This document shows, in pieces, positions 1 through 23,460 of a DNA stretch of 64,000 nt. The stretch spans positions 6,578,066-6,642,065 of the forward strand of contig NC_087386.1 in the NCBI RefSeq assembly GCF_963675165.1, written 5' to 3'. The position numbers were made by a program, and so were the translations under genes. The number at the start of each line of letters is the position of its first letter. The first letter of the stretch is position 1. The DNA is from Halichondria panicea. Lineage: Eukaryota > Porifera > Demospongiae > Suberitida > Halichondriidae. Below the pieces are notes generated by a model. That model searched no databases. It was not told where the DNA came from and saw nothing but the letters and a program-made list of their open reading frames with translations.

Positions 1-490
1 CATACTACGTCCAGTATGTTTCCTTTTGTGTGTGTTGGAGATGCAATCAGTTGGAGAAAGTTCTGAGCGAAAAGTGAGTTACAAATAGAAACCGAGAGTG
101 GAGTTTTTCCAGACAAAGATGACCAATCTACATCTGGGCAGTTTAGGTCGCCCACCAAGATGGTGTTGTGGTTTGGAAGAGACGATATGGCGTTTGCCAC
201 TTCTAAAGAAAAATGTGCTGGTGGTATGTAGATACATGCCAGGGTTGTTTTGGGAGAAACAAGCAGTTCAATTACAATTAGTTCCAGAGATTCGTGCCTG
301 CAGATTAGTTGAGAGGGTATATCTTCGGATATCAGAATGGCTACACCACCTCCTCTCGCACTTCTGTCTCTGCGGTAAATTTTGTAGCCAACTGGAGAAA
401 TTTCATTATCATATATCAAATCAGTGAGCCAAGACTCAGTTATACATATCACATCCAGAGATAGGCTCGCTATCATTGATAGACTATGCT
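1..490 (-). mobile_element. LINE (non-LTR retrotransposon) endonuclease fragment
   Basis: The minus strand reads open from about 490 to the window edge. It shows the hallmarks of an apurinic-like LINE endonuclease: ICITESWL, then GYKIYRRDRSARGGGVAILI, then LVGDLNCPDVDW, and finally PTHTKGNILDVV. Order and spacing fit CR1/L2-type non-LTR elements. The reverse transcriptase would lie outside the window to the left. Towards the 5' side the frame meets the TAG of a neighbouring frame near 505, so the element looks truncated or frameshifted. The clade is inferred from motif style only. Confidence 0.8.
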
Positions 491-712
491 TCTTTTCTAG
501 TAGCCTAGATATCCAGCAGGAGCTGTTTCTGCATTCTCCAGAGAAATACAGTGTCCCAGCTCGCCTTGTCAGCTAAATTGAGCTGTAAGGTTTCCCACTT
601 GAACGCAGCAATCTGATTGGGCTGCAAATTTCTTGCAGTGGGAACAAAACTGCTACATGTACTGATACCCAACCATGAGCAAAGCGTTGGTTGGACTCCG
701 CCCAACTAGTCA
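491..712. other. Stretch between LINE fragment and CARD-TIR pseudogene
   Basis: No recognisable coding or repeat structure. It differs from the 5' region shared by the other CARD/TIR genes in the cluster, so the first pseudogene appears to have lost its original promoter or to have been cut here by the LINE insertion. Confidence 0.4.
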
Positions 713-2714
713 ATGACTACCGATACAGCGGAATACAAAGCCATCTGTAGGCTAGCTGCAGAGTGGATCTGACAGAGAGGCTCTCTAATTGCTTCAAAGA
801 TGTAGCTGAATACCTAAGTCGGAGTGGAGCACTGACTGGCAAACAATACCAGACAATCATTAGTGCTGAGATGCTCATGAATTATGTTCTTGTGGACATC
901 AAAGACCCAGACACAACATTGGATGCATTTGCCTACTTTGTGACAGCAATGAAACAAAGTGGAAACACATTCTTCAAAGCATTTGTCAAGAAAAAAATTG
1001 AAGCTAAACGAAAGGAGTTCTATAGGGAACTGCTCCAAGTTCCACCAAGTAACGGAAAATGGTGATAATTATATGATCATGATTGAATTTTCCCATGCTC
1101 ACAGGTTTCGTGGCATCTCAGGAATACGACGTCTTCATCAGCTACAGCCGTGAGACTGACATTATGCGCACAGTGGACACTCTTCTGTGCTCTCGACTGA
1201 CACAAAAAGGCCTCAGCGTGTTTGTAGACAGAGATGACATTCGTCCTGGGAACAGATGGCGATCTGAAATTGCCTCTGCCATCAAAACCTGCAAAGCCTT
1301 TGTTTGTGTGCTCACTAAATGCTACGTGAGGTCATGTGTACTGCAATGGAGAGCTGTACAAAGCAGTGTCTCTTAAGAAGCGACTGTTCCCAGTGGTGTG
1401 TGAGGATGGTTGGGGAGATGTGCCTGGAGGTGCTCCTGTGACAGAGGTAGTGAGAGACTCTCTCTAGTGGCAGAGGACAGAGAGACACAATTCAAAAGAC
1501 TGGTGCAATGGATTAAAGGTCAGTCATTGCATTGCAATCACTCTCATAGTGTTACTGAACTTATTTTGAAGTACTTTGCATAATGATATCATTATTCATT
1601 TTGCAGAAACTGTGGCACCTGTTGCAGTAGCTCCAGGCTCGTCTAATCTACCCACCGATCATGCTGGTAAGATGATGCTATATTTACTTGTTATTGTTGG
1701 TGCAGAATGAGTTATTATCCCTCATGCAGGTCCCTCGTCCTCTGTAATGGAAGGTGTGTGTAAGGAGACTGGAGTGATCAACAACTCGATCAAGAAATCT
1801 CTGAGAGTGACATCATTCTATTAGCGGAGAAATTTCCTCACCTGCTGAGCGTGCACAAGTTAGGTAGTACATATAAATTATATACGTAACTTGTAGTCCT
1901 GACATTTTGGTGAGAAGAGAAATGGTGTTCATGTGTATGGGGGATTGATGACATGTATCTAGAGGGTTCGGGGTATGCCCCCAGGAACTCTTTACTACCT
2001 GCTATTAAGAATATTGTTCACCTGAACCACTCAATTGTATTCCCATCGAGTTTCTTCTAGAAGGTATTTCCGAGGGGGCAACTCCCACCAAATGTAACCC
2101 TGTTGATTGTTGCTTTTGTACAGGCTTTGACAATTTACGTTCTACAATATGTTTACGAGAAACTTAAAAGTGTAAGCCCTCACTGGTTCGATCTGGGATT
2201 GGCTCTAGGTCTAACTCATCCTGTTCTCACCAACATGTATAGCGAGCATCGTGGAAATAATGTGTTGTGCTTGCGTGAAATGTTGGAGTACACAAGATGT
2301 AACATGGAGTCTCCTGTCAGATGGTCTCAAAAAGCCTACAGTGGAGCTCATCAATTTGGCTGATAGCATCACAGGTAACTATTTTTCAGTGTTTATGCAT
2401 TTGACCCTGTGTGATTCAGTGGTAATATGTACATCAAACGTCATTTAAAATTTTTTTCTTTGCATTCAGCCACAACTCCTAACCTGCTCAATCAACTCGA
2501 CCTCACCCCAGCCAACCTCGATGATGTAACTGATGTCACACATCGTTATGACAATCAAGCTGGAGTGGCTCATGCATTGAGAGTGTAGCGAAGAGTGAAT
2601 CCTTCCAGAACTACCTTCAGGGCCTTGGTGGAAATTGCCATAGGACTGAGAAGAGGAGACACCGCTACAGACATTTGTAGATTCATTGTAAAGGAACTGA
2701 ACAAAGATATTTAA
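713..2714 (+). pseudogene. Broken CARD-TIR-Death domain gene
   Basis: This is a decayed relative of the intact CARD-TIR genes at 13742 and 23761. The start MTTDTAEYKAIC is recognisable, but a 5-base insertion near 750 breaks frame. The CARD-like part (763-1056) and the TIR (about 1107-1500, EYDVFISYS, VFVDRDDIRPG) follow. In the TIR a 1-base insertion near 1335 destroys the YCNGEL segment that holds the conserved Glu, and a 10-base deletion near 1460 follows. A Pro-rich linker exon (about 1606-1671), a Death-domain N-half with a frameshift (about 1729-1858), a second Death domain broken near 2290 (2125-2377) and a Death-domain C-half (2469-2711) complete it. In that last part TAG at about 2587 stands where the related Death domain has Trp. 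At least five lesions make a functional product unlikely. Confidence 0.85.
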
Positions 2715-3083: not shown

Positions 3084-6000
3084 ATGGGGATCACTGTGGA
3101 GTTGTGGAGAGCTCGTATTGGGCAGTTTAGTGGTGGGAGGGGATCCCGACCACACAGTAAAGCTCCCTCGACAAAACAGCCTCTACACTTCAGTGATACA
3201 GTGGGTACTACTGCGAAAGTGGTTCAAGGAGGCTTGCTTTTATTGCTAATTCTCAAGTTTCTGAGCTCTCAAGACAAATCACATTTGCTAAAACGCACAA
3301 GGAATGCTGGTCTCCTGGCGATTGCTATTGTTGGGTTGGCCCACTCTCTTGCCCACCTCTTGCTGCTAGCTGGAGACATTGAGAGCAATCCTGGACCTCG
3401 AATGGGTATGATTTATATTGTGAAGGTGGATGTTTCTGCCTGAAACTAAATTTCCTATCTTGTTGCAGATGAAGTTCTGACTGTAAATGACCTGAGTGAC
3501 ATTTACGAGAAGCTGTTCAAGGCTCGTACAGAATGGTTCAATATTGGGATAACTCTCAATGTCGATTACAATACTCTTACTGCTATCAATCAGAAGTATT
3601 CTAGTGATCATCGATATCGTGACCGTCTCCGAGATATGTTGGCTCATCGTCTCAATTTAGCAGATTCACTCACTTGGGGAGAGGTGTGCAAGAGTCTTAG
3701 ACACGTCACAGTAGGACACAACGATGTGGCGGATGAAATAGAAGGATCTGTTTCAGGTATAGTTTAGTACAGGTAGCGAACCACTCCAACTCAGAACCTT
3801 ATTAATCAAAATGTGTATGGCACTCAGTAAGTTCATTGCGTACAATATTATGTATGTAATCATGCCTATACCCCTGCTGTCAACTAGTCTCGCGAGCAGA
3901 CTTGTCCTAGAGGGAACGTCTGGTAACTATTGCAGCAATTCCATGGCACTGAGGAATGTAGTCACGTGCAAGATATTTATTAATTAACCAAATTCACATG
4001 TAGACAAATATTTTCATTTGCAGCTAGCTAGCTCTTGCTTGGTCTGAGCTCCTTGTAACCGAGTTCCTTCGCAACCAGGTATGGTTCAATACTAAAATTA
4101 GCCTTTGCTAGAGTCAATAATCCTTCTTTTCACGTTCATTTTATGCTATAATAGGAAAATATACGGGGTGTTACCGCCCACTAGCTATGACGTGGACAAA
4201 TCTGATTGGCACTGCCAACATTCTGGCAGGGGCCACGGAATTGCTGCAATAGTGACCAGACGTTCCCTCCCTCCCACGTCTGCTCGCGAGACTAGCTGTC
4301 AACCTGGGGGCTATAATTACAATTGTTTTGTATTCATACAGCAGGATACTCATATTGTTGATTGTGTCATTCCATACTGTAGGGTCCTCTGCTCAACCAG
4401 TGAGTGCAGTTCTTCAAGGGCTGATGGACAAATATCAAATCACTACTTCTCAAGTCGACTGTGAAATCCAACAAAAGGACATACCATATTTGGCTCCGCA
4501 CTTTGACGATGTTAACCTCTATGTTGATGAGATGGAATTAACCGCTGGGGAGCAAACGGATGTCAACGGTGCAGATACTAAGCAATTAGCCATGATCAGG
4601 TGCTTGAATCTCTGGACAAGAAAGAATCCCGCACAAGCGACATTCAGGGCCCTTCTGGAGATGTTGGTAAAGCTAAAGAAGGAAGAGATTGCTATTCAAA
4701 TATGTCAGTACTTGAAGGTGAGTCTGTGTGTACACGTTCTAATATTTCTATAATACTTATACATGTATTCAGGGTTTCATACAGAGGGGTGGGAGCCCTG
4801 GGATTTCCTCCCCCCTGGAAATATAATAAATGTCATACCAAATTGTGGTATTTTACAGTGAAGAAATAGTTATAATCTACATGTAGCTATAGAGTAAACA
4901 ACCAATTATCGAACACGTTATATTTTGGAACGCTTGTTCTCGAGGACAGCGGCTCAGAGCACTAAGCTGATAGTACCTAAGTATGGACTAAGTAAGGCTC
5001 TATTCAAGTCCGAACTCACGGCCAACAGCAAGCTTCCTCGGCGGAGTGACAGGTCCAAATACTCAACTATTGGAACAGATTTAGTTCGAACATAGCCACG
5101 ATATTCTTCGAACTCTCTCTCTCGTATCGATAGAAGGCTCTATACAGCTAGCTACAATGGCATGACTGTAATCTACAACTAGTAAACTATGTACAGCTCT
5201 GGTTTTAAGGTCTGACTGCAAGCTGTTAGACAACGGTGGCCTCTTAAAAAAGTGCAGTCGTGCCATCAAAATCCAAACGATTAATACCTTTTCTACAATC
5301 TCCATATTTAAAGTTGCTGTTTTATAACGTCATGGCTACACTGTCGTTCGGATTTTGATGGCATGCACTACTGCACTTTTTTAAGAGACCACCATTGTCT
5401 AACGGCTTGCAGTCAAACCTCGAAACCAGAGCTGTACATAATTTACTAATTGTAGATTACAGTCATGCCATTGTAGCTAGCTGTATAGAGCCTTCTGTCG
5501 ATACGAGAGAGAGAGTTCGAAGATGTATGGCTATGTTCAAACTAAATCTGTTCCAATAATTGAGTGTTTGGCCTTGTCACTCCGCCGAGGAAGCTTGCTG
5601 TTGGCCTAGTCTATACCTAGGTACTATCAGTTTAGTGCTCTGAGCCGCTGTCCTCGACAACAAGCCTTCGAAAATAGAACGTGTTTGATAATTGGTTGTT
5701 TACTCTAACATGTATCAGTTATCCATTTTGATCTGTTAGTAAGGTGCTTCTTCAGTGATACCACAATCACACTCAAGAAACAGTGTGGTTAATTACATGC
5801 ATTGCGCAAGCACATGCGATAGAATTTGTGATTGTAACCTAGTCACATGGTTACAGTATAATTTATCGGACAGCAACAAAATGGAAAATTGTTTCGGATT
5901 TTTAGTACACGTGAAATGTCCGGAATACCATGAGGTGCAAAATTTCACATTTTTCGAAGGTATAGAGCAGTAATCAAAACTAGGATAAACCCAGTATTTC

Positions 6001-9000
6001 AAATGCAAAGCTAATTGGTGGGTGTGGTTTTCCAACATTTATTAGAACCCACGAACATTTATGCTGAGTCCAAATAGCGAAAATTTGCACCCACGAAAAT
6101 TTCCTGTTTGTATTCCCATCGAGTTTATTCTTGAAGGTATTTTTGAGGGGACCAAATGAAACCCTGTTTACTGTTGTTTTGCACAGGCTTTGACAATTTA
6201 CGATATACAAGATGTTTACGAGAAACTGCACACTGCAAGCCCTCGCTGGTTCGATCTGGGATTGGCTCTAGGTCTCAGTAATTTCGTTCTCACCAACATC
6301 GATAGCAAGCATCGTGGCGATAATGTGTCGTGCTTGCGTGAAATGTTGGCTCACCTCCTGAGTACACAACATGTAACATGGAGTCTCCTGTCAGACGCTC
6401 TCAAAAATCCCACAGTGAATCTCATAAATTTGGCTGATAGCATCACAGGTAACTATTTTCAGTGTTTATGCATTTGACCCCGTGTGTGTTTTAGTGGTAT
6501 ACGTACATTAAACGTCATTTTAGGAATGTCTTTTTTCTTTGCATTCAGCCACAACTCAGATCAGTCAGTAACTAATCTCTCAAATACTGTTACCACCAGT
6601 CCTGCATTTTGATAGTTCATTGAGTACCGTTTATGCTCGTTCTAAGTGGTGTTTCGTTTTGCAGGAGCTGTGGCACCATTATCACCTTTATTACCTGTTG
6701 CCGTAGCTCCAGATTCACCTAATCTACCCACCGATCGTGCTGGTAAGATGTGCTCACTATATATAGTGTGTCCTTTAATTAAAACTTTGATCCCCCCTCC
6801 ACTCTACACACACACACACTCAAGTATCTATTTATTTTGACTAGTGCCTAAACATAATTTGATATCAAAATAGAGGTTAGGACCAGCCACACAGACCAAC
6901 AATTGCCAATTGGTAAAGGATCACAAGTCCCAAAAGCAAATATCGTGTGCCGGTCCATGCCGGTCTGCCGGTCCACGACAGACATACACCACAGACCATT
7001 AATGACTAACTAAAGGACTCGCTTTGCTCGCCCCAATAATACTGCTTTCTGCTTTTACTCTGTAGGATTGGTGAACAAAGCCGCTACACAACTGTCAGAG
7101 CACACACCTCTAACACAAGATGAGATTGATGCTCTACAGAAGCTTATCGAGGGAACAGGAGTGAACATTGATGACATCATTGCTACTGGTCAAGGCCTCA
7201 CGCTTGAAGAAGCTCAACAATTGCTTGCTGAGAAAGGACACATTGAGGACGCAGTGAAGCTCAAGATAAGGCTACAAGAAAGTACGTATCTAGTGTTCCA
7301 TGTCTAAATTGCCTGAGGGTTGTATGCCATTCACTTAATTCAAGTACCGTATAGCGCGAAATTTCCAAGACGTTTAATTTTCGCTGTTTATAGAAACTCT
7401 CCACAAAAATTAGGTCCACTTAGCTACATCATTTGGCCAAAATCAACAAAAATAATGCTTTTAGAGTCATTTCCACGAAAATAAGTGCCTCAAACAATTT
7501 ATGTGTGTGTAGTGTTTTGATTCGTGGATTTACAAACTATAATTTTAGCTACAAGAGTCAGAAAAGAGCTGCAAACTGTACTGCCAGAAGTTGCAGCAGC
7601 CATTGCGAACTTTAACCTAGCTATTGCAGATACACTCTTTTTTCTGCGCATGGAATTGCCTCTTCTATACTTTTGAGCAAAGCAAAACATATTAGCATAG
7701 CCAGGAGCACATTACAGAAGGAGCGTCTTACCTTGGGAATCGCATCTCGTGCAAGTTTGCAAAGCATGACCTTATATGCAAAACCGCTAAGTGGGTGATA
7801 ATCATCTGTGGGCGAGTGCTAGTTGAGCTGACGGTGCACTTTTACCATGCAAGCATAGGTCAATAAAAATGAAAAGCTACAGCTAGCTAGCTAGCTATAG
7901 GCCTGGTAGTAAGGCTCTCTCTTCTAAGAACCCCAGTAAGACTCCCTACTGCAAAAACAAAACGCCTAGTATGTGTTAGTCTAGGTCTAGCAAACTTTCT
8001 CTTCACAAAGTAATGGATATGCTCCTCTTTTAGAATTGTCTATACCTCACCAATGACAGTCTCTTCCATGATGTACACCAACATCCATCAAAGACCTAGC
8101 TATTCATTTTAGCTCTTTCTGGCTCAACCTAGCTCTCCTGCTGCTGCACTACATACAAAATCCGTTTATAATGATATTCACAGGCTGACCGCAGTCTGTA
8201 ATTTATGTACACAGTACTTTCACACTTTTCTTATAAGGCAATGCGGCGTTTAGGAAAACACACGAGATGCGATTTCCGAACCCATGCACAGTTAGACGCT
8301 CCTGTATTGTGCTCCTGGCATAGCCAGGGTAGCATACAGGATTTTACAGTAGAGGGGGGAAATAAGAAAAGTAACCAGAACATTTTGCTAAAAAAAGGGT
8401 CAACTGTTATTTCAATACCCTGTTATAATAGGACACCCAGTCATACAACTAGTACCTGAATGCAAAAAATGGGGGGGGGGAATTGGAGCTGGGGGGGTAT
8501 CCCCCCTTTCCCCCTGTATGACACCCTGATAGCGCACATTCATTGCATTAATTTTTTTTCATAGTTGCTAAAGAGCAGCAGCGATATCTCGAGATACTCA
8601 AGGATTTAATGACAGCTGCTGGCACCATCGACCTTCGCTACTTGAAACTGTATCTTGTTGGCCCACCTAATGTGGGCAAGACGACCACTCTAAGCCGTCT
8701 CCTAAAAACATTTGAGAATATTCATTCAGCAGGAGACAAATCAAACATTCAAAGTACGCTACTCGCTAACTGTATTCAAGCGTTTGCTTTTGTTGGTGAC
8801 GACACAGCAGAGTGGCTATCTTCCAATAACGTCGACAATGAAGCGCAACTTTTGTTCAACTATTTGTGTGGACCGCTGAACACACCCCTCAGTGAACAAC
8901 TAAGTGAAGAACACACTACTCCACCCGAACCTTCCAGAGAACAGTCACATGTTCAACAAGATGAATCCCACAAGCTCATTTCTGTAGAGAACGTTGTTTC

Positions 9001-12000
9001 ACAAGTTGATAAACTCGATACTTCAGATGGAGAAACAAAGACTTGCAAAAATCAAAGAATTAATGATGGTATCAGTCGATTCCAAAAATTGATCAAAAGT
9101 GGAGACTATTCTACCCTTTTCAAGGCTTTGGGCACATTTTTAAATATTAATGATATTGGAGGTCAGCCATGCTTTTTAGAAATGCTCCCAGCTCTGAGCA
9201 CTGGTCCGGCCATGTATCTCGTCTTCTTAGACTTGAGCAAAGAGCTAAACGAGCCGTACAAAATCCATTTTAGTCGCAAAGGCAAAAAAATCACTCCCTA
9301 TGACGCTATACATACAGTCAAAGAAACAGTGTCTCAAATCCTTTCTTCCATCAGTAGCATACATAGTATCCCTCAAGTGACCTGTTCATTCAAGACCGAT
9401 AAAGTTGATGGATTTAGCGAGAAGCTTGAATTATTCCAACAAGTTAGTCCCTTGGCTGCGTTGATAGGCACTCACAAAGATAAGCTGGAGCATCCAGAGA
9501 AGGAAATCAAGAAAAAAAGCGAAGATTTAAATGACATTGTAAAAAAACAGTTTGGAAAAATAATGATTACTCCTGGCGCTACTGATTCAAATCTATTTAC
9601 CGTAGACAACCACCATGGAACTGAGCAGTCGGACATAGGCCCACTTCGTAAAGTGTTAAGTGACAACTTTCAAACACGCTTCAAGAATGCTTCGTTACCG
9701 ATTAGACCAAAATGGCTTTTATTTGGACTCATTCTCCGAAGGGAATACAAGATTGCTAATATTGAAGATTGTTTAGAGTTAGGGAAGAAACTTGAAATGG
9801 ATGAAAATGAAACGACATTTTGTCTGCGGTATCTTCATGACTGCGTTGGCACTATCATGCATTTCACAAGCGTTTTGAATGATAAGAAAAACTGGCTCAA
9901 GAATCATGTAATTTGCTCCCTTCAAGTTCTTTTCGATAGCATCAGTGAGCTGATTCTACCTTCTTTGTGTGGGCTTCGTTCTGGAAGTACTTTCACTGAG
10001 AATGAAAAAAAACTGTTTAGAAAGGGGCAATATTCAGCTAAAACTATCGAAATGTGTTGCAAAACGTCAAGAAATAATGAATTTATCCCAGCCAAGAATC
10101 TTATATCACTTCTTCAACATCTTAACCTTCTCTCTGAAATCGTTCACAAAGTTGTTAATGACCCAAGCAAGTGTCAAATCACCTATTTTATGCCGGCTAT
10201 CTTAGAGTGTGCTTTACAAGAGGAGCTGACCAACCCCCCTCCACCAGACGCCAACAACCCAGAGCCACTGCTCATTACATTCAGCCGTGGTTACGTTCCA
10301 ACAGGAGTTTTTTGTGTTCTGATCACTCGACTAGTTTCCCAAGGCCCTCGTGGAATCCTTGTATTTACTTGGGAGTTGGTGGAAGATGGTGTCAAGCGAA
10401 ATTGTGTATCTTTTCTCGTCGACAAAACACACAAGGTGACTCTACTAGCACACAATCAATACTACGAAATTCGAGTTGTCTACAATCCTGATCCTGATGG
10501 TCACATGTGTCTTCCTGATCCTGATGGTCACATGTGTCTTCATGACCTTTGTACTTATGTTCTCTCAGTGATGCTCTACACTCTCAAAAGCCTTTACTCA
10601 GACTTGGTTCCTCAAATTGCATTCCGTCACCAGTCCAGCCGAGATAATTTGTGCGTTCTTACCAAAGATTTCTGGGTACGGTTTCTTTGTGGTAGTAATC
10701 CAGTGACACCAACGAAAGACCAACAAGTTTGGTTGGGTAAGGTAAGTTATTTATATATATTTAAATGTTTTGTGTTTTATATTTCGTATATTCGTGCAGA
10801 CTGTCTCCATTGGTCAGAGTGCTAGCTTGGAAGTTCTCAAGTTCATAAAGGGACAGCCTCTGGAGAGATTCTCTTTCAATTGGAGCAAAGTGGGAATTAA
10901 CGACACACGACCTCCAGCTGATGACTGCAAGCCCAACATGCTCACCTTCCGGAGTGTGAGTGAGGAGTACCTGGGCTACTACCAGTGTGACGTAGAGGAG
11001 GCTGGGAAAGTGGTCTTCACTGTCTATAGAGCTCTCTACAAAGGCGAGCTCAGTAAGTTCAGTACGTACACGTGTCGACCTTCTGCTTCTGTGCTTCTTA
11101 CCAATTACTTACGTATAATTATTGTAACTAACGCTTAAATTTTCGCATTACATCTTCATTAGTGAGTGAATCATTGCTAGGAGAATACTCAGGAGCAGCT
11201 GATCAGAAGAGAAGACTGTCAGCTGTGGAGATGTCCAGTGCAAAACACACACGGTTAATATCTCCTCAAGGTGTGTTGGGTGGTGTCCTCCATGATTATT
11301 AGCAGTATTTAAAACCATACCATTGTACCCTATGCCTAGAGTCTTACTATTCAATGTGTGTGTGCGTGTCTATAACCCCTAGCTAGTTTTCTACTTTAGT
11401 GACCTTTTTCTATTGTGCCTGGTACGGGGATCCCTTCAGCTATAAATATGTAGGGTACCTCGAATAAAGGCCGCGTGTAGTTAGCCAGAGGAGATTTAGC
11501 CTCGAATCCAGGCCGATTAAAATACGGCCTGGTACCTATTGCATGTGTAATTAATTATAGGCGTGGCCGTCCACACCCATGTACTATCTACTATTATATG
11601 AAGCTTTTATAGCCTAGCTAGCTAGCTAGCTGTGGCCTTCTCTATGGTGTTGTGTTGAGAAGGCTTGCACACGAAGCCAGAAGAGGCTCTCATCTACCTC
11701 TATGATGGTTGGATGGTCGTGATGTTTTGAACTGGGTTTCTGACAGACTATGGCAAGTCTTTGACTTTGTGCTTCCAACTGCAACCATAGGACCATTGTA
11801 GAGGTAGATGTGAGCCTCTTCTGGTTTTATAATAGTGTGCAAACCTTCTCGACAACACAATAGAGAATATAAGCCACAGCTTCACAGGAGAGAGAGTTTA
11901 AAGTGTTTCTGACAAACTATGGCAAGTCTTTGACTTTGTGCTTCCAACTGCCACCATAGGACCATCGTAGAGAGCCTCTTCTGGCTTTAGACAAGTGTGT

Positions 12001-13542: not shown

Positions 13543-13741
13543 CAGGGGTGGGGCATGTAGGGGGTTTCCCTGCTGAGCTCAGCTTTTTGAAAGCCACAAG
13601 CCTAGCCAGGCAAGAACTAGAGCAAGAATCTTGATTGTCTATTATAATTAGCTGTAGCTTTATTGTGCTGGTATCAATATAGCTGAGGTGCGTTGAAAAC
13701 ATGCTGCATATAGTACACATTACACATTCCCCTCACTGCAG
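13543..13741 (+). promoter_or_regulatory. Shared 5' region, copy 2, with kB-like site
   Basis: Ordered blocks: GGGGTGGGGCATGTAG, GGGGTTTCCC (13561-13570), GCTGAGCTCAGC, AGCCAGGCAAGAA, CTTTATTGTGCTGGTATCAA, then ACACATTCCCCTCACTGCAG immediately before the ATG. GGGGTTTCCC matches the NF-kB consensus GGGRNNYYCC. Regulation by NF-kB is inferred. Confidence 0.55.
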
Positions 13742-14792
13742 ATGACTACTGATACACCTGAATACAAAGCCATCAGTAGCTGCAGAATGGATCTGACAGA
13801 GATGCTCTCTAATCACTTCAGGGAGGTAGCTGGACGTTTACGTGATAGTGGAGCACTGACTAACAGCCAATGCGAGGAAATCATTGAATCCGGACCTCCT
13901 AAAGCATGTGCTCGTAGGCTTATAGATATGATCACTATCGACATCAAAAATGACCCATTGGATGTTTTTGCCGAATTTGTGACAGCAATGAAAAGCAGTG
14001 GGAACAAACGCTTCAAAGACTTTGTCAAGGAAAACATTGAAGCTAAACGAAAAGAGTTGTATAGAGAATTGCTCCAAATTCCACCAGGTATGTAACAATG
14101 GTGATAATAATTATATGATCAAGGGCATATAAAAGAAGAGAGGGCATGCAACAGTAAAAGAGTAGAATTCAAATGTTGGGCGGATGAATGTGCATGAAGT
14201 GCTAAATATCTATTTTTAGCAGTTCATGCACATTCACATTCATCGTCCACATTTGAATTCTGCTAGCTACGTGTACTATAGATAAGTGAGTTGCATGCAT
14301 GCCCTCTCTTCTCCCTTGATATGATCATGATTGACTTTTCCCATGTTTACAGGTTTCGTGGCATCTCAGGAATACGACGTCTTCATCAGCTACAGTCATG
14401 AGGCTGACACTATACGAATGGTGGACAATCGTTTGTGCTCTCTACTGACAGATGAAGGTCTCACTGTGTTTGTAGACAGAGACGGCCTTCGTCCTGGGGA
14501 CAAATGGCGATCTGAGATTGCCTCCGCTATCAAAACCTGCAAAGCCTTTGTTGTAGTGCTCACTAAACGCTACATGAGGTCTGCGTACTGCAATGGAGAG
14601 CTGTACGAAGCAGAAGCTCTTGGCAAGCGTATACTCCCAGTGGTGTGCGAGAAGGGATGGGGAGATGTACCTGGAGGTGCTCCTGTGACAGAGATAGTGA
14701 AGGAGGTTCAGTATGTCTCTCTAGTGGCAGAAGACAGCGAAACACAACTGACAAAACTGGTGGAAAGTATCAAAACGTCAGTCAGTGCGTAG
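13742..14792 (+). CDS. CARD-like plus TIR domain protein
   Basis: Two exons, 13742-14087 and 14353-14792, joined in phase 1, give about 261 residues. Exon 1 encodes a helical CARD-like domain (about 18-110; SGALTNSQCEEIIES, FVTAMKSSGN). Exon 2 encodes a complete TIR: EYDVFISYS (box 1), VFVDRDGLRPGDKW (box 2), and YCNGELYEAEAL with the Glu that is catalytic in NAD-cleaving TIRs. No membrane span or signal peptide is seen, so a cytosolic adaptor or enzyme is likely. It stops at TAG directly after SIKTSVSA, exactly like the paralogue at 23761; the longer family members instead splice at this point (AAAG/GTCAGT). The intron carries the mobile element at 14119-14319. The domain families are clear, but signalling partners are unknown. 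Confidence 0.88.
14119..14319. mobile_element. 201-base foldback MITE with target duplication, in CARD-TIR intron
   Basis: Ends TCAAGGG/CCCTTGA; the arms contain AGAAGAGAGGGCATGCA and TAGAATTCAAATGT with their complements. TATGA at 14114-14118 is repeated at 14320-14324; with shifted ends the duplication is TATGATCA. The related intron in the pseudogene at 1060-1085 reads TATATGATCATGATTG without the element, a natural empty site. Confidence 0.85.
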
Positions 14793-15037
14793 TACCTGAA
14801 CTAACTGCACCGTTACATAGTTTATAGGTATAGTTTTGTTAGCAAACTGCTGTAATTATTTATACATTTTGTACATTTCCTATAAGATTTTTTTTTTGTA
14901 TGTTACCCTTATCAGGAGTGCATAATCTCCTGCCCCTATCTATTTATAATTATGTGTTCAGTCAAGTGTATAGTCTAACTCTTGGTCTCTGGTGCTCTAT
15001 TGACATGCATGGTGTCATCATGGGGGTGGTGGAAATA
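14793..15037. other. Intergenic stretch after the first CARD-TIR gene
   Basis: Contains no recognisable gene. It matches 24599-24870 closely, showing that the CARD-TIR gene and the following gene were duplicated together. Confidence 0.5.
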
Positions 15038-15286
15038 CAGGGGTGGGGCATGTAGATCTAGGTTTTCCCACAGCTGAGCTCAAACTTCATGTGCATGCTG
15101 AGTTCGAGTACAAGTACGTATATTGTGTGCTGCTCTGGCTCCTGCTATACCGAGGCCAATGCAAGGCGCATAAAAGCTTTATTGTGCGTGGTATCAATAG
15201 GTTATAAGGTACGTTGAAAACATGCTGTATTATTATAGTCAGCATTACACATTTCAATATCCCCCCTTAACTTGGCTCACTTGTAG
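15038..15286 (+). promoter_or_regulatory. Shared 5' region, copy 3
   Basis: GGGGTGGGGCATGTAG, then AGGTTTTCCCA (15060-15070, a weakened kB-like site), GCTGAGCTCA, TTTATTGTGCGTGGTATCAA, and ATTACACATTTCAATATCC with a C run. It precedes a broken gene but closely matches the copy at 24871. Confidence 0.5.
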
Positions 15287-16354
15287 ATGACTACCTATAC
15301 TGCTGAATACAAAGCCATCTGTAGCTGCAGAGTGGATCTAACCAAGAAGCTCTCTACGTGTGTCAATGAGGTAGCTAAATACTTTTACGTCAGAATGAAG
15401 TACTGACTGACGACCAATGCCAGACTATCATCAGTGCTGAAGACGGTGCTGAGAAGCTCATGAAGATTATTATTGTTTTCATCGAAGACCCAGTCAGCAC
15501 ACTGGATTCTTTTGCCTACTTAGTAACAGCATTGAAAAGAGGTGGAAACAGATTCTTTCAAGAATTTGTCAAAGACAAAATTGAAGCTAAACAAAGGGAA
15601 ATCTACAGGGAGAAATTTCTCCAAGTGCCGCACGGTATGTAATGATGGTTACGTAATGGTGATGATCATTATGAGTTTAATTTTCCTAGATTTCCTGGCA
15701 TCAAAATACCACGTTTTCATCAGCCACAGCCACAGCTGTGAGGCTGACACCATGCACACAGTGGACATTCTTATGTTGCGACTGAAACAAGAACGCCTCC
15801 GCGTGTTTGTGGACCAACGTAGCATTTGGCCTGGGGACAAATGGCCATTTGAGATTGCCTCCGCCATCAAAACCTGCAATGCCTTTGTCGTTGTGTTCAG
15901 TAAACGCTACGTGAGGTCCGTGTACTGCAATGGAGAGCTGTTCAAAGCAGAAGCTCTTGGCAAGTGCATGTTCCCAGTGGTGTGCGAGGATGGTTGGGGA
16001 GATGTACCTGGAGGTACTCCTGTGATTGAGGTGTTGAAGGTCTTTCAGGATGTGTCTCCAGTGACAGGAAATAAGGAGAAGCAACTAACAAGACTGGTCC
16101 ATAGTATCAAAGGTCAGTCAGTAATGAATCTCAGAAATTAGTGTGCCACCATCTTAATTGAAGTATACTGTTACTAAGCAGTATTTCGTTTTGCAGGAGC
16201 TGTGGCATCATTATCACCTTTATCACCCGTTGCCATAGCTCCAGATCCACCTAATCTACCCACCGATCATGCTGGTGAGATGTGCTCACTATAGTGTTCA
16301 AACCTTTACCCCCCTACACACTACACCCACACGCACACACACACACACACACTA

Positions 16355-16399
<45 letters not shown>

Positions 16400-19300
16400 C
16401 ACGCACACCACACCCACACACACACATACATACACACACACGCATACATACACACAGACGGAGCTACACCAGAGAGGAAACAATCGTTAGTAGCTGCCTG
16501 GAAGGAAAAGCTTGCGCCAAAGCTGTCTCTAGAAATCAGGCAATATGATCTAATATTGGTCGCTGGATTATTTGACAAAGTGGAGCCTTATTTAGATCAG
16601 TTCTGGTTAACAGATGGTGAAAAGAGTGACGTACGTGCTAGTGCTCTGCTCAATGGCACCCAGGTTGGAATGAACACTGCTTTATCAACGTGGAAGTCCC
16701 ACCAACCTTGGCATGCAACGTATGGGGCACTACTGGATATTGTGTTGAGGCTGAAGAAAGGGAAGATAGCTCTTGGACTGTGCGAATTCCTGGACCAACG
16801 GCAATGTTAGCAAACTATAACACTATATGTAACATGTATAATAATAATAATTATTTACTCTGTACAGTGGTGAACAAAGCCGCTACACAACTGTCAGAGC
16901 GCACACCTCTAACACAAGATGAGATTGATGCTCTACAGAAGCTGATCGAGGGAACAGGAGTGAACATTGATGACATCATTGCTACTGGTCAAGGCCTCAC
17001 TCTTGAAGAAGCTCAACCATTGCTTGCTGAGAAAGGATACATTGAGGACGCAGGGAATCTCAAGACAAGGCTACAAGAAAGTACGTATCTAGTGTTCCAT
17101 GTCTAAATTGCCTGAGGGTTGTATGCCATTCACTTAATTCAAGTACCGTATAGCGCGAAATTTAATTTCCAAGACACTTAATTTTCGCTGTTTATAGAGA
17201 AACTCTCCACAAAAATTAGGTCCACTTAGCTACATCATTTGGCCAAAATCAACAAAAATAATGCTTTTAGAGGCACTTCCACGAAAATAACCTCAAACAA
17301 TTTTGTGTGTGTAGGGTTTTGATTCGTGGATTTACAAACTATAATTTTAGCTACAAGAGTCAGAAAAGAGCTGCAAACTGTACTGCCAGAAGTTGCAGCA
17401 GCCATTGCGAACTTTAACCTAGCTATTGCAGATACACTCTTTTTTCTGCGCATGGAATTGCCTCTTCTATACTTTTGAGCAAAGCAAAACATATTAGCAT
17501 AGCCAGGAACACATTACCGAAGGAGCGTCTTACCTCGGGAATCGCATCTCGTGCAAGTTTGCCCTTATATGCAAAACCGCTAAGTGGGTGATAATCATCT
17601 GTGGGCGAGTGCTAGTTGAGCTGAAGGTGCACTTTTACCATGCAAGCATAGGTCAATAAAAATGAAAACTACAGCTAGCTAGCTAGCTATAGGCCTGGTA
17701 GTAAGGCTCTAGATCTCTCTTCTAAGAACCCCAGTAAGACTCCCTACTGCAAAAACAAAACGCCTAGTATGTGTTAGTCTAGGTCTAGCAAACTTTCTCT
17801 TCACAAAGTAATTGATATGCTCCTCTTTTAGAATTTTCTATACCTCACCAATGACAGTCTCTTCCATGATGTATACCAACATTCATCAAAGACCTAGCTA
17901 TTCATTTTAGCTCTTTCTGGCTCAACCTAGCTCTCCTGCTGCTGCACTACATACAAAATCTGTTTATAATGATATTCACAGGCTGACCGCAGTCTGTAAT
18001 CTATGTACACAGTACTTTCACACTTTTCATATAAGGCAATGCGGCGTTTAGGAAAACACACGAGATGCGATTTCCGAACCCATGCACAGTTAGACGCTCC
18101 TTCTGTATTTTGCTCCTGGCATAGCCAGGGTATCATACAGGATTTTAAAGTAGAGGAGGAAATAAGAAAAGTAACCAGAACATTTTGCTAAAAAAAAGGG
18201 TCAATACCCTGTTATAATAGGACACTCAGTCATACAACTAGTACCTGAATGCAAAAAATGGGGGGGGAAACTGGAGCTGGGGGGTATCCCCCCTTTCCTC
18301 CCCCCTGTATGACACCCTGACAGCGCACATTCATTGCATTAATTTTTTTTCATAGTTGCTAAAGAGCAGCAGCGATATCTCGAGATACTCAAGGATTTAA
18401 TGACAGCTGCTGGCACCATCGACCTTCGCTACTTGAAACTGTATCTTGTTGGCCCACCTAATGTGGGCAAGACGACCACTCTAAGCCGTCTCCTAAAAAC
18501 ATTTGAGAATATTCATTCAGCAGGAGACAAATCAAACATTCAAAGTACGCTACTCGCTAACTGTATTCAAGCGTTTGCTTTTGTTGGTGACGACACAGCA
18601 GAGTGGCTATCTTCCAATAACGTCGACAATGAAGCTTTTGTTCAACTATTTGTGTGGACCGCTGAACACACCCCTCAGTGAACAACTAAGTGAAGAACAC
18701 ACTACTCCACCCGAACCTTCCAGAGAACAGTCACATTTCAACAAGATGAATCCCACAAGCTCATTTCTGTAGAGAACGTTGTTTCACAAGTTGATAAACT
18801 CGATACTTCAGATGGAGAAACAAAGACTTGCAAAAATCAAAGAATTAATGATTGTATCAGTCGATTCCAAAAATTGATCAAAAGTGGAGACTATTCTACC
18901 CTTTTCAAGGCTTTGGGCACATTTTTAGATATTGGAGGTCAGCCAGGCTTTTTAGAAATGCTCCCAGCCTTGAGCACTGGTCCGGCCATGTATCTCGTCT
19001 TCTTAGACTTGAGCAAAGAGCTAAACGAGCCGTACAAAATCCATTTTAGTCGCAAAGGCAAAAAAATCACTCCCTATGACGCTATACATACAGTCAAAGA
19101 AACAGTGTCTCAAATCCTTTCTTCCATCAGTAGCATACATAGTATCCCTCAAGTGACCTGTTCATTCAAGACCGATAAAGTTGATGGATTTAGCGAGAAG
19201 CTTGAATTATTCCAACAAGTTAGTCCCTTGGCTGCGCTGATAGGCACTGACAAAGATAAGCTGAAGGACCCAGAGAAGGAAATCAAGAAAAAAAGCGAAG

Positions 19301-21034
19301 ATTTAAATGACATTGTAAAAGAACAGTTTGATAAAATAATGATTAGTCCTGACGCTACTGATTCAAATCTATTTACCGTAGACAACCACCATGGAACTGA
19401 GCAGTCGGACATAGGCCCACTTCGTAAAGTGTTAAGTGAAATCTTTCAAACACGCTTCGAGAATGCTTCGTTACCGATTAGACCAAAATGGCTTTTATTT
19501 GGACTCATTCTCCGAAGGGAATACAAGATTGCTAATATTGAAGATTGTTTAGAGTTAGGAAAGAAACTTGAAATGGATGAAAATGAAACGAAATTTTGTC
19601 TGCGGTATCTTCATGACTGCGTTGGCACTGTCATGCATTACACAAGTGTTTTGAATGATAAGAAAAACTGGCTCAAGAATCATGTAATCTGCTCCCTTCA
19701 AGTACTATTCGATAGCATCAGTGAGCTGATTCTTCCTTCTTTGTGTGTGCTTCGTTTTGGAGGTGCTTTCACTGAGGATGAAAAAAAACTGTTTAGAAAG
19801 GGGCAATATTCAGCTGAAACTATCGAAATGTATTGCAAAAAGTCAGGAAATAATGAACTTATCCCAGCCAAGAATCTTATATCGCTTCTTCAACATCTAA
19901 ACCTTCTCTCTGAAGTCGTTCACAAAGATGTTAATGACCCAAGCAAGTGTCGAATCACCTATTTTATGCCGGCTATCTTAGAGTGTGCTTCACAAGAGGA
20001 GCTGACCAACCCACCTCCACCAGATGCCAACAACCCAGAGCCACTGCTCATCACATTTAGCTGTGGTTACATTCCAACCGGAACTTTTTGTGGTCTGATC
20101 ACTCGACTAGTTTCCCAAGGCCCTCATGGAATTCTCAGATTTACGTGGGAGTTAGTGGAAGATGGTGTCAAGCGAAATTGTGTATCTTTTTTCATCGATA
20201 GATCAAACAAGGTGACCTTACTAGCCCACGATCGATGCTACGAAATTCAAGTTGTTCGCCATCCTAATGGCCGCATGTCTCTTCATGACCTTTGCACTTA
20301 TGTTTTCTCAGTGATGCACTACACTCTCAAAAGCCTTTACCCACACTTGGTTCCTCAAATTGCGTTCCAATGTCCCTGCCCTGGTCACCAGTCCAGCCGA
20401 GATAATTTGTGTGTTTTTACTGAAGATTTCTTTCTTTGTGGTAGGAATCCAGTGACACCAACGAAAGACCAACAAGCTTGGTTGGGTCAGGTAGGTTATT
20501 TATATTTAAATGTTTTGTGTTTCATTTCTTTTCATATTTGTGCAGACTGTCTCCATGCATTGGTCAGAGTGCTAGCTTGGGAGTTCTCAAGTTCATGAAG
20601 GGACAGTCTCTGGAGAGATTCTCTTTCAATTGGAGCAAAGTGGGAATTGACGACACACAACCTCCAGCTGATGACTGCAAGCCCAACATTCTGACCTTCA
20701 AGAGTGTGCGTGAGGAGGACCTGGGCTACTACCAGTGTGAGGTGAAGGAGATGAAGGCTGGGAAAATGGTAGTGGTCCTCACTGTCTACAGAGCTCTCTA
20801 CGAAGATACGCTCAGTAAGTTCAGTACGTACATGTGTCGACCTTCTGCTTCTTTGCTTCTTACCAATCACTTACGTATATTAATTATAACTATAACGCTT
20901 AAATTTTCGCATTACATATTCATCAGTGAGTGAATCATTGCTAGGAGAATACTCAGGAGCAGCTGGACAGAAGAGAAGACTGTCAGCTGGGGAGACGTCC
21001 AGTGCAAAACACACACGGTCAATATCTCCTCAAG
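15287..21034 (+). pseudogene. Broken CARD-TIR-Death-ROCO-Ig gene (second ROCO copy)
   Basis: Exons seen: CARD 15287-about 15633, TIR 15690-16112, Pro-rich linker 16197-16274, Death domain 16458-16805, helical exon 16868-17080, Roc-COR 18356-20490, Ig-like 20546-20814, small exon 20927-21034. Junctions are in phase 1 except COR-Ig, which is phase 0. From 16868 on it parallels 7066-11270. Lesions: +2 bases in the CARD near 15384, -5 near 18634 and -1 near 18737 in Roc with a TGA between them, and +4 near 20556 in the Ig exon followed by TAG. The Roc G3 motif is canonical here (DIGGQPGF), so this copy keeps the ancestral form where the intact gene has an insertion. A shorter product containing the TIR and Death domain cannot be excluded. 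Confidence 0.8.
16327..16457. repeat. (CA)n-rich microsatellite ending in a 3' splice site
   Basis: ACACAC tracts with interruptions (ACTACACC, ATACATAC) end in CACACAG directly before the Death-domain exon at 16458. Confidence 0.8.
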
Positions 21035-23460
21035 GTGTGTTGTTAGGTGCCCTCCATGATCTTTAGCAGTATTTGAATGGAACCAAACCATACCAAGTTT
21101 GTACCCTATTCCTAGAGTCTTACTATTCACTGTGTGTGTATAAACCCTAGCTTTCTACTTTAGTGACTATTGTTCCTTGTAGGGGATCACTTTGATCAGC
21201 TTATTATCGCATTACATCTTGTTACTATATAAGGAGAATGCGCAGGAGTAGCTGGTCAGAAGAGAAAATTGTCAGCTGGGGAGACATCCAGTGCAAAACG
21301 CACACAGTCAATATCTTCTCAAGGTGTGTTGTTCAGTGTTCTGATTATTGACAAACCTTACCTGGCGTTTACTATTCACTGTGTATGTGTCTAACCCCTA
21401 GTTTTCTAGTGACCCTTTTCTATTGTTCTTGGTAGGGGATCACTTAGATCAGCTTATTATCGCATTACATCTTCATTAGTGAGTGGCTCATTGCTATAGG
21501 AGAATGCTCAGGAGTAGCTGGTCAGAAGAGAATGCTACCAGTGCAAACTACACAGGGTCCCAAGGTGGTGTTGTTTGGTGTCCTAATCATTATAATTATA
21601 TATAACTATAGCTGGAAATGTTCGTAAGTGAAAAGTTTCGCTATTTGGCCTCAGAAGAATTGTAATATAGGTAATAAGGAAACCACACCCACCAATAGCT
21701 TTGCATGTGAAATACCAGTGCGTGGGAGTTTCTCCCAGTTTGCGTTAAAGTAAATTTTTATTAGCGTTCTCTAATGTTGGGATATGATCATGCAAGTAAT
21801 AGACTTAGTTGTGACACCGCCACGAGTGCCATGCACATGAGATATATTGGCTCAGTGTATAGTGACGTAGCCGCGGCACTCAGCACCATTCACTGTCCAA
21901 TATGGTATATATATTGGCACACCGGATCTTTGAGGTCAACCTGCAACAAGAGTGTGTTATTGCACCTCTCATTATGCCTCGAGGCGTAGCCGCACAAGGG
22001 ATACGGTAAAGCTGACTGTGTGTGTGTCTGTCTGTGTGTGTGTCTGTTCCAGCTGTAAATGCTCAACGGTTGCAATGAGACGAAAACTAACAGCTTCTAT
22101 AGGCTTCTAGCCACCTTCTCTTGGATTTTGATTCGTGGATTAGCAAACTATAAAGCTTCTTTCTCGAGTTATGGCTAGTTTGACTCACATTGAAGGCTGT
22201 TGCAGTCTCTTCAGAATCTTTCATAGCATCATCTGTCCGCACAAACTTTCTATTCAACATATGAGTTAGCCTTGCACTAAAGCGCTAGCTTTTTGTTAGC
22301 TACAAGACTCAGAAAATACCTGTTAAAACAGCTAGCTAGCAGTAGCCATTTGTGAAATTGATCTCTTTGGACACACCCTTTAATTATTCCTGTGGATGTA
22401 ATGCGCATGCGCCCATGTGATATCCAAGATCCAGATCCAGATCCTCCTGGCAGAATCATATTTTTCTTGAGGGCCTGGTAAGTCACAAAACACTACTATA
22501 TAACAATATAGATAACAATATGCATGTACAGAAGTCTTTTCTTCTTAGATTAAGTCTTTTCTTCTCACTCAGTGACTTTATATAGATAAGCTAACTTTAT
22601 GAAATAATTAGTAAAATTATGCACTTCCGCTTATAATTAATTGAAAACAAAATCTTCTTCTTTGTTGCTTCCTAGATCCTTGAGGTCCTGGTATAAGCAG
22701 CCACAAAACACAACAATGATACCATAATTATACAATTGAATAGGTGCAAGTCAGTTTTAGACAAATTATTTTATACACTTTTTCCTCTTCTATACTTCCT
22801 CTTCTATACTTTTGAGCGAAAGTAAATCATGGCGAGAGGCATTAGCACAGCGCCAGCTTGAACACTAGTTGTATACTGTACGTTGCTCAACAAGTCGAAT
22901 CTCAGGAAATCCTATAAAAACACTTATCCTGTTTTGACAATGTATATCAGGGTAGGTGCGATGGAATTAACCTATGCATGGCGAGCAAATTATGATATCT
23001 GGTTGCCTCCTAGCTATGATTAAGTATTTGAAAATCTGAAGCTCTCACCAGCAACACTCAAGCAGGGCCCTTCAGGTTCTAGATATGTTAGTAGCTAGCT
23101 AGAACTAAAGAAAGAGAATTGCTGACCAAGTTTGAGTACTTACATATGAAAGGTGAGTATTTGTTTGCACATGTACATTTGAATAATACCAAACCTTACC
23201 TTATTGAGTTAGAAAGCCATGCACTGAAAATCATTTTTGCTACGATTGACAATCTTTGCCCACCCCTACACCTTATTTTGTTATAATTATATATACCCTT
23301 CAATCAAACACATGCACACAGACGGAGCTACAGACAGCTGCCATGGTGCTAAATCCGCTGCCTGCATGCATGGAAGGGAAAGCTTGGGCAAAGCTGCCTC
23401 TAGAAATCAAGCAATAATTATGATCTAATTCTGGATTATTTGACAATGTGGAGCCCTAAT
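21035..23460 (+). pseudogene. Relics of further Death/ROCO gene copies
   Basis: Contains extra copies of the small exon (21225-21325, about 21480-21566), a truncated TATAGCG-family element (21600-21755) and sequence matching 12920-13110 (21755-21900). Pieces of the ROCO-gene intron with the alternative-exon region lie at about 22130-22420 and 22800-22860. At 23320-23460 is the start of a Death-domain exon related to 16458-16590 (GACGGAGCTACA, GGATTATTTGACAA.GTGGAGCC), cut off before the core. No open product. It appears to be the shrunken remains of at least one more tandem unit. Confidence 0.55.

What the first reader, a model, noticed from the sequence alone, without database searches (positions are those of the whole stretch)
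3084..3405. Ribosome-skipping (2A/StopGo) leader on a Death-domain/ROCO immune-type gene
Exon 1 ends in a perfect DIESNPGP motif after a Leu-rich hydrophobic run, then splices in frame to three Death domains and a Roc-COR GTPase. In characterised 2A sequences, skipping separates leader from body, while failure to skip leaves the hydrophobic leader attached. One mRNA could thus supply a cytosolic receptor and a membrane- or secretory-targeted form. N-terminal 2A sequences are known on sea urchin NLR-type proteins. A 2A joined to Death-Death-Death-Roc-COR-Ig is, as far as I know, not described.
Basis: partly seen in the sequence, partly recalled or inferred. Interest (0 to 1): 0.88.

Follow-up and report, generated by a model that had tools for sequence, protein, structure and literature searches.

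The report
Ribosome-skipping leaders on death-domain genes
An animal gene that looks like an immune sensor begins with a short leader that should make the ribosome release it and carry on, and the same kind of leader sits in front of dozens of death-domain genes in this genome, although such self-releasing leaders are thought to be rare outside viruses.

Summary
Exon 1 (3084-3405) encodes a canonical L-rich StopGo/2A element (LLLLAG-DIESNPGP, 3357-3398) and joins in phase to a Death domain (3469-3756). It is not a one-off: the genome has 116 D-x-E-x-NPGP sites against 1 for the reversed pattern. Of 109 listed sites, 78 are followed within 1.6 kb on the same strand by a Death exon (61 by one query, 17 more by a second); upstream Death exons are rare (0 of 109; 5 of 48 with the second query). 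Bodies after these leaders include Roc-type GTPases, NACHT (NLR-type), ankyrin repeats and a metallopeptidase. The leader is under purifying selection (dN/dS 0.35), with a conserved N-terminal island that skipping does not need. Best reading: release of a conserved small hydrophobic leader from a death-fold receptor during translation, the skip ratio possibly setting a membrane-tethered fraction. Skipping, expression and targeting were not tested. The link from exons 1-3 to the Roc-type body rests on splice phase alone; COR and Ig labels are weak. N-terminal 2A on sea-urchin NLRs is published, so this is a new variant of a known kind, notable for scale and range of bodies.

The parts
3084..3405 (+). 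Exon 1: 107-aa leader (family A), ends in phase 1
   Evidence: ORF and splice model; 18 full-length matches at 83-100% identity genome-wide, 17 without internal stop; dN/dS 0.35, bootstrap 0.23-0.52
3084..3149 (+). Conserved N-terminal island MGIxVELWRARIGxFxGGRGxR, shared by leader families A and A'
   Evidence: Conserved columns in 5 aligned leaders; dN/dS of first 23 codons over 7 leaders of A and A' 0.28 (0.08-0.81)
3222..3272 (+). First hydrophobic stretch (about residues 47-63), weak in this copy
   Evidence: Kyte-Doolittle scan: best window of this copy at residues 40-56 (mean 1.64), in most family A copies at 47-63
3312..3374 (+). Second hydrophobic, Leu-rich stretch running into the 2A octamer (residues 77-97)
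   Evidence: Kyte-Doolittle scan, best window residues 77-93, mean 2.09
3357..3398 (+). StopGo/2A element LLLLAG-DIESNPGP (octamer 3375-3398)
   Evidence: Exact core; L-rich hexamer ending (A/S/C)G with p12=D and p15=S matches published motifs 2/6 (PMC12846837 section 10); octamer dN/dS 0.14
3406..3468 (+). Intron 1 (63 nt, GT..AG, phase 1)
   Evidence: Phase-1 junction recurs in paralogues
3469..3756 (+). Exon 2: Death domain (phase 1-1 exon)
   Evidence: Profile of 14 relatives hits FADD/PIDD death domains in PDB, E 0.0012-0.035; AF2 pLDDT 72.8; Foldseek ranks 1-25 all death domains, best E 0.017
4383..4717 (+). Exon 3: second Death-like domain, phase-0 donor
   Evidence: Pfam Death E 0.003, below cut-off; 72-73% identical to exons after two family A leaders in L070
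4890..5707 (.). Fold-back (inverted-repeat) element in the proposed intron between exons 3 and 4
   Evidence: Three nested inverted-repeat pairs, 92-94% complementary
6187..6448 (+). Exon 4: third Death domain, phase-0 acceptor, no in-frame ATG upstream
   Evidence: Aligns with exon 2 (37%); frame opens at 6160 without ATG, first Met at residue 53 of 87
6665..6742 (+). Exon 5: linker
   Evidence: Copy at 16199-16273, 80% identical
7066..7281 (+). Exon 6: segment of unknown kind
   Evidence: 90% identical copy at 16867-17079; no Pfam family over its cut-off
8565..10741 (+). Exon 7: Roc-type GTPase (GPPNVGKT, DIGGQ, THKD) and following region (COR not confirmed)
   Evidence: Motifs; Pfam Roc E 0.0027 below cut-off; 74 matches genome-wide, 62 of 329 candidates scored
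10800..11052 (+). Exon 8: possible Ig-like domain
   Evidence: Pfam Ig_3 E 0.0094, below cut-off
11163..11270 (+). Tentative exon 9; the 3' end of the gene was not worked out
   Evidence: In-frame continuation and a copy at 20929-21030; 3' boundary read

Best explanation
Exon 1 is a working StopGo/2A leader of a death-fold receptor gene. The ribosome makes 104 aa ending ...DIESNPG, fails to form the Gly-Pro bond, releases the leader, and continues from Pro to make the body (P-R-M-D-E... Death-Death-Death-Roc-type GTPase). The leader is a conserved small hydrophobic protein in its own right, with an N-terminal island kept by selection. When skipping fails, the body stays joined to the hydrophobic leader and is probably membrane-tethered. 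The same 2A-then-death-fold arrangement is a recurrent N-terminal module in this genome, carried on Roc-type, NACHT, ankyrin and other bodies. Shown here: sequence, splice phase, conservation, genome-wide association. Inferred from published StopGo work: skipping. Inferred only: separate leader function, membrane-tethered fraction, immune role.
For: Core octamer and L-rich hexamer match a published class of StopGo; a representative of its motif 6 was active in vitro (PMC12846837 section 10). 116 sites against 1 control; p13 V/I in 37 of 37 distinct 23-mers copied from the list. All 18 full-length leader copies at 83-100% identity, found without using the motif, keep D[VI]ESNPGP; three degenerate copies with stops have lost it (NHGP, NLEP, NPEP), two broken copies, L041 and the split L058/L060, keep it. 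Leader dN/dS 0.35 (0.23-0.52), 0.37 without the octamer, no bootstrap of 2000 at or above 1. Phase-correct exon 1 to Death exon junctions in 34 of 38 leader-Death pairs by fixed thresholds, 27 of them reading directly into the Death domain in phase 1. A Death exon lies downstream of 61 of 109 listed sites with the C14-type query, 0 upstream, 0 on the opposite strand; with the exon-2 query 34 of 48 fetched sites downstream, 17 of them new.
Against: No transcript, proteome or translation data. The exon 3 to exon 4 junction is not backed by a paralogue. COR and Ig are not confirmed. With the exon-2 query 5 of 48 sites also have a Death exon within 1.6 kb upstream, at least two of them the one belonging to the preceding tandem site. 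Fourteen of those 48 sites had no Death exon by that query. The hydrophobic run may serve only StopGo. Family A' leaders evolve faster (dN/dS 0.65, 0.47-0.90), so a function of the free leader is less clear there. A single hydrophobic stretch with a basic N-side (A') would place a tethered body in the lumen, which suits a death-fold receptor poorly.
Confidence: 0.72

Rival explanations
1. Two neighbouring genes: exons 1-3 (2A-Death-Death) are a truncated relative of the leader-Death-ankyrin genes, and the Roc-type gene starts elsewhere. The 2A is real but not on the Roc-type protein.
For: Exons 1-3 resemble the front of the C5 leader-Death-ankyrin genes (exon 3 72-73% identical, L070). The intron between exons 3 and 4 holds a fold-back element. 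A 93% identical Roc-type body at C14:4.78 Mb and one 82% identical on C13 have other fronts without a 2A in the stretches fetched.
Against: Exon 4 has no in-frame ATG before it and its first Met is at residue 53, so it needs an upstream phase-0 exon; exon 3 has a canonical phase-0 donor. The other upstream candidate, the CARD/TIR remnant at 751-2700, has its TIR frame broken. All five Roc-type copies listed on C2 lie 3.7-6.1 kb after a 2A site, so 2A before a Roc-type body occurs elsewhere too.
Confidence: 0.2
2. The hydrophobic run has no targeting role. It is the upstream part that L-rich StopGo needs in the exit tunnel, skipping is nearly complete, and only a cytosolic receptor and a leftover peptide result.
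For: L-rich hexamers are a major StopGo class, and mutating characteristic residues of the tested upstream motifs nearly abolished activity in almost all cases (PMC12846837 section 10). SpNLR2A6 recoded about 80% in vitro and its major products were cytoplasmic in HeLa (PMC4981915 section 3 part 1).
Against: The N-terminal island and much of the leader lie outside the stretch StopGo needs, yet are conserved. Family A has a second hydrophobic stretch; A' has a strong one before the octamer (17-aa KD mean 2.87-3.30).
Confidence: 0.35
3. The motif is a relic: a leader captured from a non-LTR retrotransposon, or a decaying copy, no longer used.
For: Four 2A sites sit in ORFs with a PHD-like cysteine pattern, like retrotransposon ORFs (label recalled). 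An APE-endonuclease-like fragment lies at about 1-600 (label recalled).
Against: Purifying selection on leader and octamer; little excess of one-mismatch sites over control; leader homology starts at the ATG while the sequence before it differs between subgroups.
Confidence: 0.06
4. Chance NPGP in an ordinary transmembrane exon.
For: None beyond the shortness of the motif.
Against: 116 against 1 genome-wide, p13 V/I, one-sided association with Death exons.
Confidence: 0.01

Closest known systems
N-terminal 2A-like signal sequences of Strongylocentrotus purpuratus NLRs (SpNLR2A; Roulston et al. 2016, PMC4981915; abstract, passages and section 3 part 1 seen)
   Same: N-terminal D(V/I)ExNPGP after a Leu-rich hydrophobic run, on death-fold immune receptors; recoding and dual targeting shown there. 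In this genome the C14 cluster (2A-Death-NACHT) is the same arrangement.
   Different: There a 26-aa sequence at the extreme N-terminus; here a 107-aa separate first exon (26-146 aa across families as I read their starts) with a conserved island, on Roc-type, ankyrin and metallopeptidase bodies as well as NACHT.
L-rich StopGo/2A elements of RNA viruses (motifs 2 and 6, Li et al. 2026, PMC12846837; abstract, passages and section 10 seen)
   Same: L-rich hexamer ending (A/S/C)G, p12=D, p15=S, (V/I)ExNPGP.
   Different: Viral polyprotein processing there; first exons of cellular genes here.
2A in APE-type non-LTR retrotransposons (Odon et al. 2013; paper not held, known from reference lists and PMC4981915)
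   Same: N-terminal 2A in an animal genome; four such-looking ORFs occur here.
   Different: The window leader is followed by an intron and a Death exon, not by a PHD-like ORF, and by eye shares only LLAGD.E.NPGP with those.
Amphimedon Death(1-3)-TRADD-N-variable C-terminus expansion (PMC8195603; section 10 and passages seen)
   Same: One to three Death-like domains then a variable body, often ankyrin; the L070 locus has Death, Death-like, a weak TRADD-N match (E 0.0066, below cut-off) and ankyrin.
   Different: No StopGo leader is mentioned in the section and passages that I saw; the word 'skipping' occurs 0 times in its main text.
ROCO proteins
   Same: P-loop, DxGGQ and THxD motifs of Roc (motif names recalled).
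   Different: COR not confirmed; StopGo-Death front.

Membership tests
StopGo/2A element | Core (D/G/C/N)(V/I)ExNPGP | tested here: met
   DIESNPGP at 3375-3398
StopGo/2A element | One of the recognised upstream contexts | tested here: met
   LLLLAG, p12=D, p15=S as in motifs 2/6 (PMC12846837 section 10); compared by eye
StopGo/2A element | Skipping activity, abolished by mutating NPGP | not testable with these tools
   Needs a translation assay
SpNLR2A-type signal-2A | 2A at the N-terminus of the protein | tested here: met
   In the first coding exon, octamer at residues 98-105
SpNLR2A-type signal-2A | Short (26 aa) element that is itself the predicted signal peptide | tested here: not met
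   The leader up to NPGP is 105 aa with a hydrophilic start of about 40 aa; no signal-peptide predictor available
SpNLR2A-type signal-2A | NACHT-LRR body | tested here: not met
   Window body has Roc-type GTPase motifs, no NACHT in the Pfam scan. L072 on C14 has NACHT; LRR there was not confirmed by Pfam
SpNLR2A-type signal-2A | Dual targeting of the product | not testable with these tools
   Needs localisation
Death domain (exon 2) | Six-helix Death fold with sequence relatives among Death domains | tested here: met
   Pfam Death not reached for exon 2 alone, reached at E<=1 by 5 of 14 aligned members
ROCO (Roc-COR) | Roc GTPase | tested here: inconclusive
   Motifs present; Pfam Roc E 0.0027 below cut-off; model unusable, pLDDT 33.6
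ROCO (Roc-COR) | COR domain directly after Roc | tested here: inconclusive
   No COR match at E<=1; AF2 model unusable; resemblance recalled only
Non-LTR retrotransposon ORF | Continuous ORF with PHD-like or later retrotransposon domains after 2A | tested here: not met
   Phase-1 intron and Death exon follow

The most novel reading that the evidence does not exclude
StopGo works in this animal as a general two-product device of the death-fold receptor repertoire. A first exon, easy to shuffle because it ends in phase 1 before phase 1-1 Death exons, delivers a conserved leader protein in step with each receptor, across at least four body types. Both products function: the free leader (MGIxVELWRARIG...) as a membrane peptide, and the receptor whose tethered fraction is set by skip efficiency, so that anything that perturbs translation would shift receptor location.
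Probability: 0.3. Interest if true: 0.88.

Novelty: new variant of a known kind. Interest (0 to 1): 0.72.

Why it matters
A 2026 StopGo study calls cellular use rare (PMC12846837, passages). One animal genome here has 116 canonical sites, 78 of 109 listed ones before Death exons, with Roc-type, NACHT, ankyrin and metallopeptidase bodies behind them. It gives a natural experiment: a 93% identical Roc-type body with another front. It also bears on reports of putative membrane-bound sponge NLRs deduced from predicted transmembrane segments (PMC12909245, passages): if those segments lie in StopGo leaders, most of the receptor would be cytosolic. I have not shown that for those genes. The selected N-terminal island makes a specific, testable claim that the released leader does something.

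Tried and rejected
Retrotransposon or viral origin of the leader: no relatives in prokaryotic genome contigs or in IMG/VR; both are weak negatives, as neither collection is meant to hold animals. Confirming Roc-COR by structure failed. PDB search with exon 7 gave nothing below E 0.16; NCBIfam gave only a small_GTP match below cut-off. My splice script asked for 6 pyrimidines; the 4 of 38 misses had an in-phase donor and acceptor with 5. It also accepted 5 weak phase-0 donors (C2 family) and 2 long joins (L013, L072), which I do not count as direct; some leaders enter with two Death exons. The statement that Death exons never lie upstream holds for the C14-type query only; the exon-2 query finds 5 of 48. 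The first pattern search used a wrong pattern without the Glu codon and is not used. Rao et al. 2025 (Cell Rep), Odon et al. 2013 and Yuen et al. 2014 were not held. Rao surveyed cellular 2A sequences, as described in PMC12846837, and could already list some of these; that is the main risk to novelty. Ten paper searches listed no paper that by title and abstract start deals with 2A in sponge or death-domain/ROCO genes; the listings were capped.

Full report
Check of the observation. DIESNPGP is at 3375-3398 and is the only NPGP in the six frames of the window. Exon 1 runs 3084-3405; the frame has a stop two codons before the ATG, which has A at -3 and G at +4. The gene model reads without a stop through nine proposed exons with GT-AG boundaries (the 3' boundary of exon 9 printed there is two bases short, so I give 11270). 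The hexamer before the octamer is LLLLAG. Published L-rich StopGo motifs end in (A/S/C)G, prefer D at p12 and S at p15, and a representative of motif 6 was active in vitro (PMC12846837 section 10 read whole). The window has these features.

More than chance. In the whole assembly (131.5 Mb, 39 contigs) the exact pattern occurs 116 times, the reversed pattern once. Allowing one mismatch gives 184 and 52, so there is little excess of nearly intact sites. The pattern leaves p13 free, yet 37 of 37 distinct 23-mers copied from the 100 listed places encode V or I there.

A leader family. Searching with the exon-1 protein alone, without asking for the motif, gave 39 matches at E<=1. Eighteen cover the whole query at 83-100% identity, 17 of them without a stop; a nineteenth (66%) has two TGA. 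All 18 keep D[VI]ESNPGP. Among broken copies, L057, L059 and L061 read NHGP, NLEP and NPEP, while L041 (one TAG) and the split copy L058/L060 keep the motif. Pooled Nei-Gojobori dN/dS over the 17 intact leaders is 0.35 (codon bootstrap 0.23-0.52), 0.37 without the octamer, and 0.29 for about residues 1-46; the octamer alone gives 0.14. Related copies are not independent; a subset of 8 gave 0.38. A second family, A' (seven copies), differs in its middle but shares MGIxVELWRARIGxFxGGRGxR and LLLLAGDxExNPGP; its dN/dS is 0.65 (0.47-0.90). Homology starts at the ATG, while the sequence before it differs between subgroups.

Junction with the Death exon. Of 38 leader-Death pairs in fetched loci (some leaders with two Death exons), 34 had an in-phase GT-AG pair by fixed thresholds. 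In 27 of these the join is phase 1 and reads straight into the Death domain. The four misses had an in-phase pair with a weaker pyrimidine tract.

Genome-wide association. One C14-type Death query gave 150 listed matches (150 of 584 candidates scored). Of 109 listed 2A sites (100, 9 more; 7 of the 116 were never listed), 61 have such an exon within 1.6 kb downstream on the same strand, 0 upstream on the same strand, 0 on the opposite strand; on C14 it is 40 of 41. The exon-2 query was run on 48 sites in fetched loci: 34 have a Death exon downstream, 5 upstream, 0 on the opposite strand. Two of the 5 upstream ones (C2) are the exon belonging to the preceding tandem site; one is the remnant at about 2121 in the window. 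The exon-2 query adds 17 sites, giving 78 of 109. Fourteen of the 48 had no Death exon by that query; four of these are the PHD-like ORFs, and two, on C1, belong to leaders that look like distant relatives, one with a NACHT match 1.8 kb on. Conversely only 63 of the 150 Death exons have a 2A upstream, so most listed Death exons do without one.

Bodies. C14 (L072): Death then NACHT (Pfam 2.1e-20). I compared ten of the 102 NACHT matches, those near 2A sites on C14, C1 and C6; nine lie 1.1-2.3 kb after a 2A. The other 92 were not compared. L070 and L071: ankyrin repeats. L081: Death (9.4e-5) and a Roc-like GTPase (1.5e-4, below cut-off); L079: an astacin/matrixin-type metallopeptidase (2.8e-7) after a CARD-looking stretch without Pfam support. 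C2: a CARD-looking stretch (no Pfam match), Death and a Roc-type body in L074; all five Roc-type copies listed on C2 lie 3.7-6.1 kb after a 2A. In L076, L077, L078 and L080 the 2A is followed in the same exon by a stretch that looks Death-like to me; only L077 was tested, with weak support (E 0.16). Four sites are in PHD-like ORFs (label recalled).

The window gene. Exon 2 is a Death domain: a profile of 14 relatives hits FADD and PIDD death domains at E 0.0012-0.035 and next only ferritin at E>=0.74. The AF2 model (pLDDT 72.8) has Death domains at Foldseek ranks 1 to 25 (lowest E 0.017). Exon 7 has GPPNVGKT, DIGGQ and THKD, but Pfam Roc stays below cut-off and COR is absent. Exon 4 needs an upstream phase-0 exon and exon 3 offers the donor, so one gene is the simplest model, not a proven one. 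The neighbour at 13.7-21 kb and the C13 copy carry CARD-like and TIR fronts, and the 93% identical C14:4.78 Mb body another front; no 2A was seen in those stretches.

Mechanism. Skipping would yield a 104-aa leader ending NPG and a body starting PRMDEV. Hydropathy shows two hydrophobic stretches in family A and one in six of seven A' copies, the last one abutting the octamer. In sea urchin, a 2A signal sequence recoded about 80% in vitro, and the unskipped mutant went mainly to the Golgi (PMC4981915 section 3 part 1). Here the same outcome is inferred. The conserved N-terminal island is not explained by skipping or by targeting alone, which is why I favour a function for the free leader.

Organism. 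Unnamed. A sponge is likely from the many NACHT and Death genes and from the Death/TRADD-N/ankyrin architecture described for Amphimedon (PMC8195603 section 10); this is inference.

Novelty. N-terminal 2A on sea-urchin NLRs is published, so the kind is known. New, as far as the ten capped searches of held papers show, are Roc-type, ankyrin and metallopeptidase bodies, the scale, and the conserved leader island. Rao et al. 2025, a survey of eukaryotic 2A sequences, could not be read.

Noticed in passing
window 751-2700: Decayed copy of a CARD-like/TIR/Death front directly upstream; TIR frame broken at about 1376.
   Followed up: partly
window 13697-21316: Paralogue with CARD-like, two TIR domains, Death-like and a Roc-type body without 2A; 2 TGA inside the body match.
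   Followed up: partly
window 1-600, minus strand: Fragment that reads like an APE-type endonuclease of a non-LTR retrotransposon (label recalled).
   Followed up: no
window 4890-5707: Nested fold-back element, arms 92-94% complementary, inside the proposed intron 3.
   Followed up: no
window 48998-53137 and 57480-61622, minus strand: Two tandem 1379/1380-aa ORFs, 94% identical, starting with a signal-like hydrophobic stretch and with hydrophobic segments in the later part; no Pfam match at 1e-3, and none in NCBIfam at E<=1 for the first.
   Followed up: partly
window 25115-27483: TIR (2.6e-20) and CARD (2.7e-9) ORFs, a further immune-type gene.
   Followed up: no
L079 (G000:C7:4930167-4933167): 2A leader before a CARD-looking stretch (no Pfam support) and an astacin/matrixin-like metallopeptidase in one locus.
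   Followed up: partly
G000:C14:500842-1625926: Cluster of 41 listed 2A sites, 40 followed by a Death exon and several by NACHT: a large set of 2A-bearing NLR-type genes.
   Followed up: partly
L012, L014, L016, L028: 2A in ORFs with a PHD-like cysteine pattern, probably retrotransposon ORFs (label recalled).
   Followed up: no
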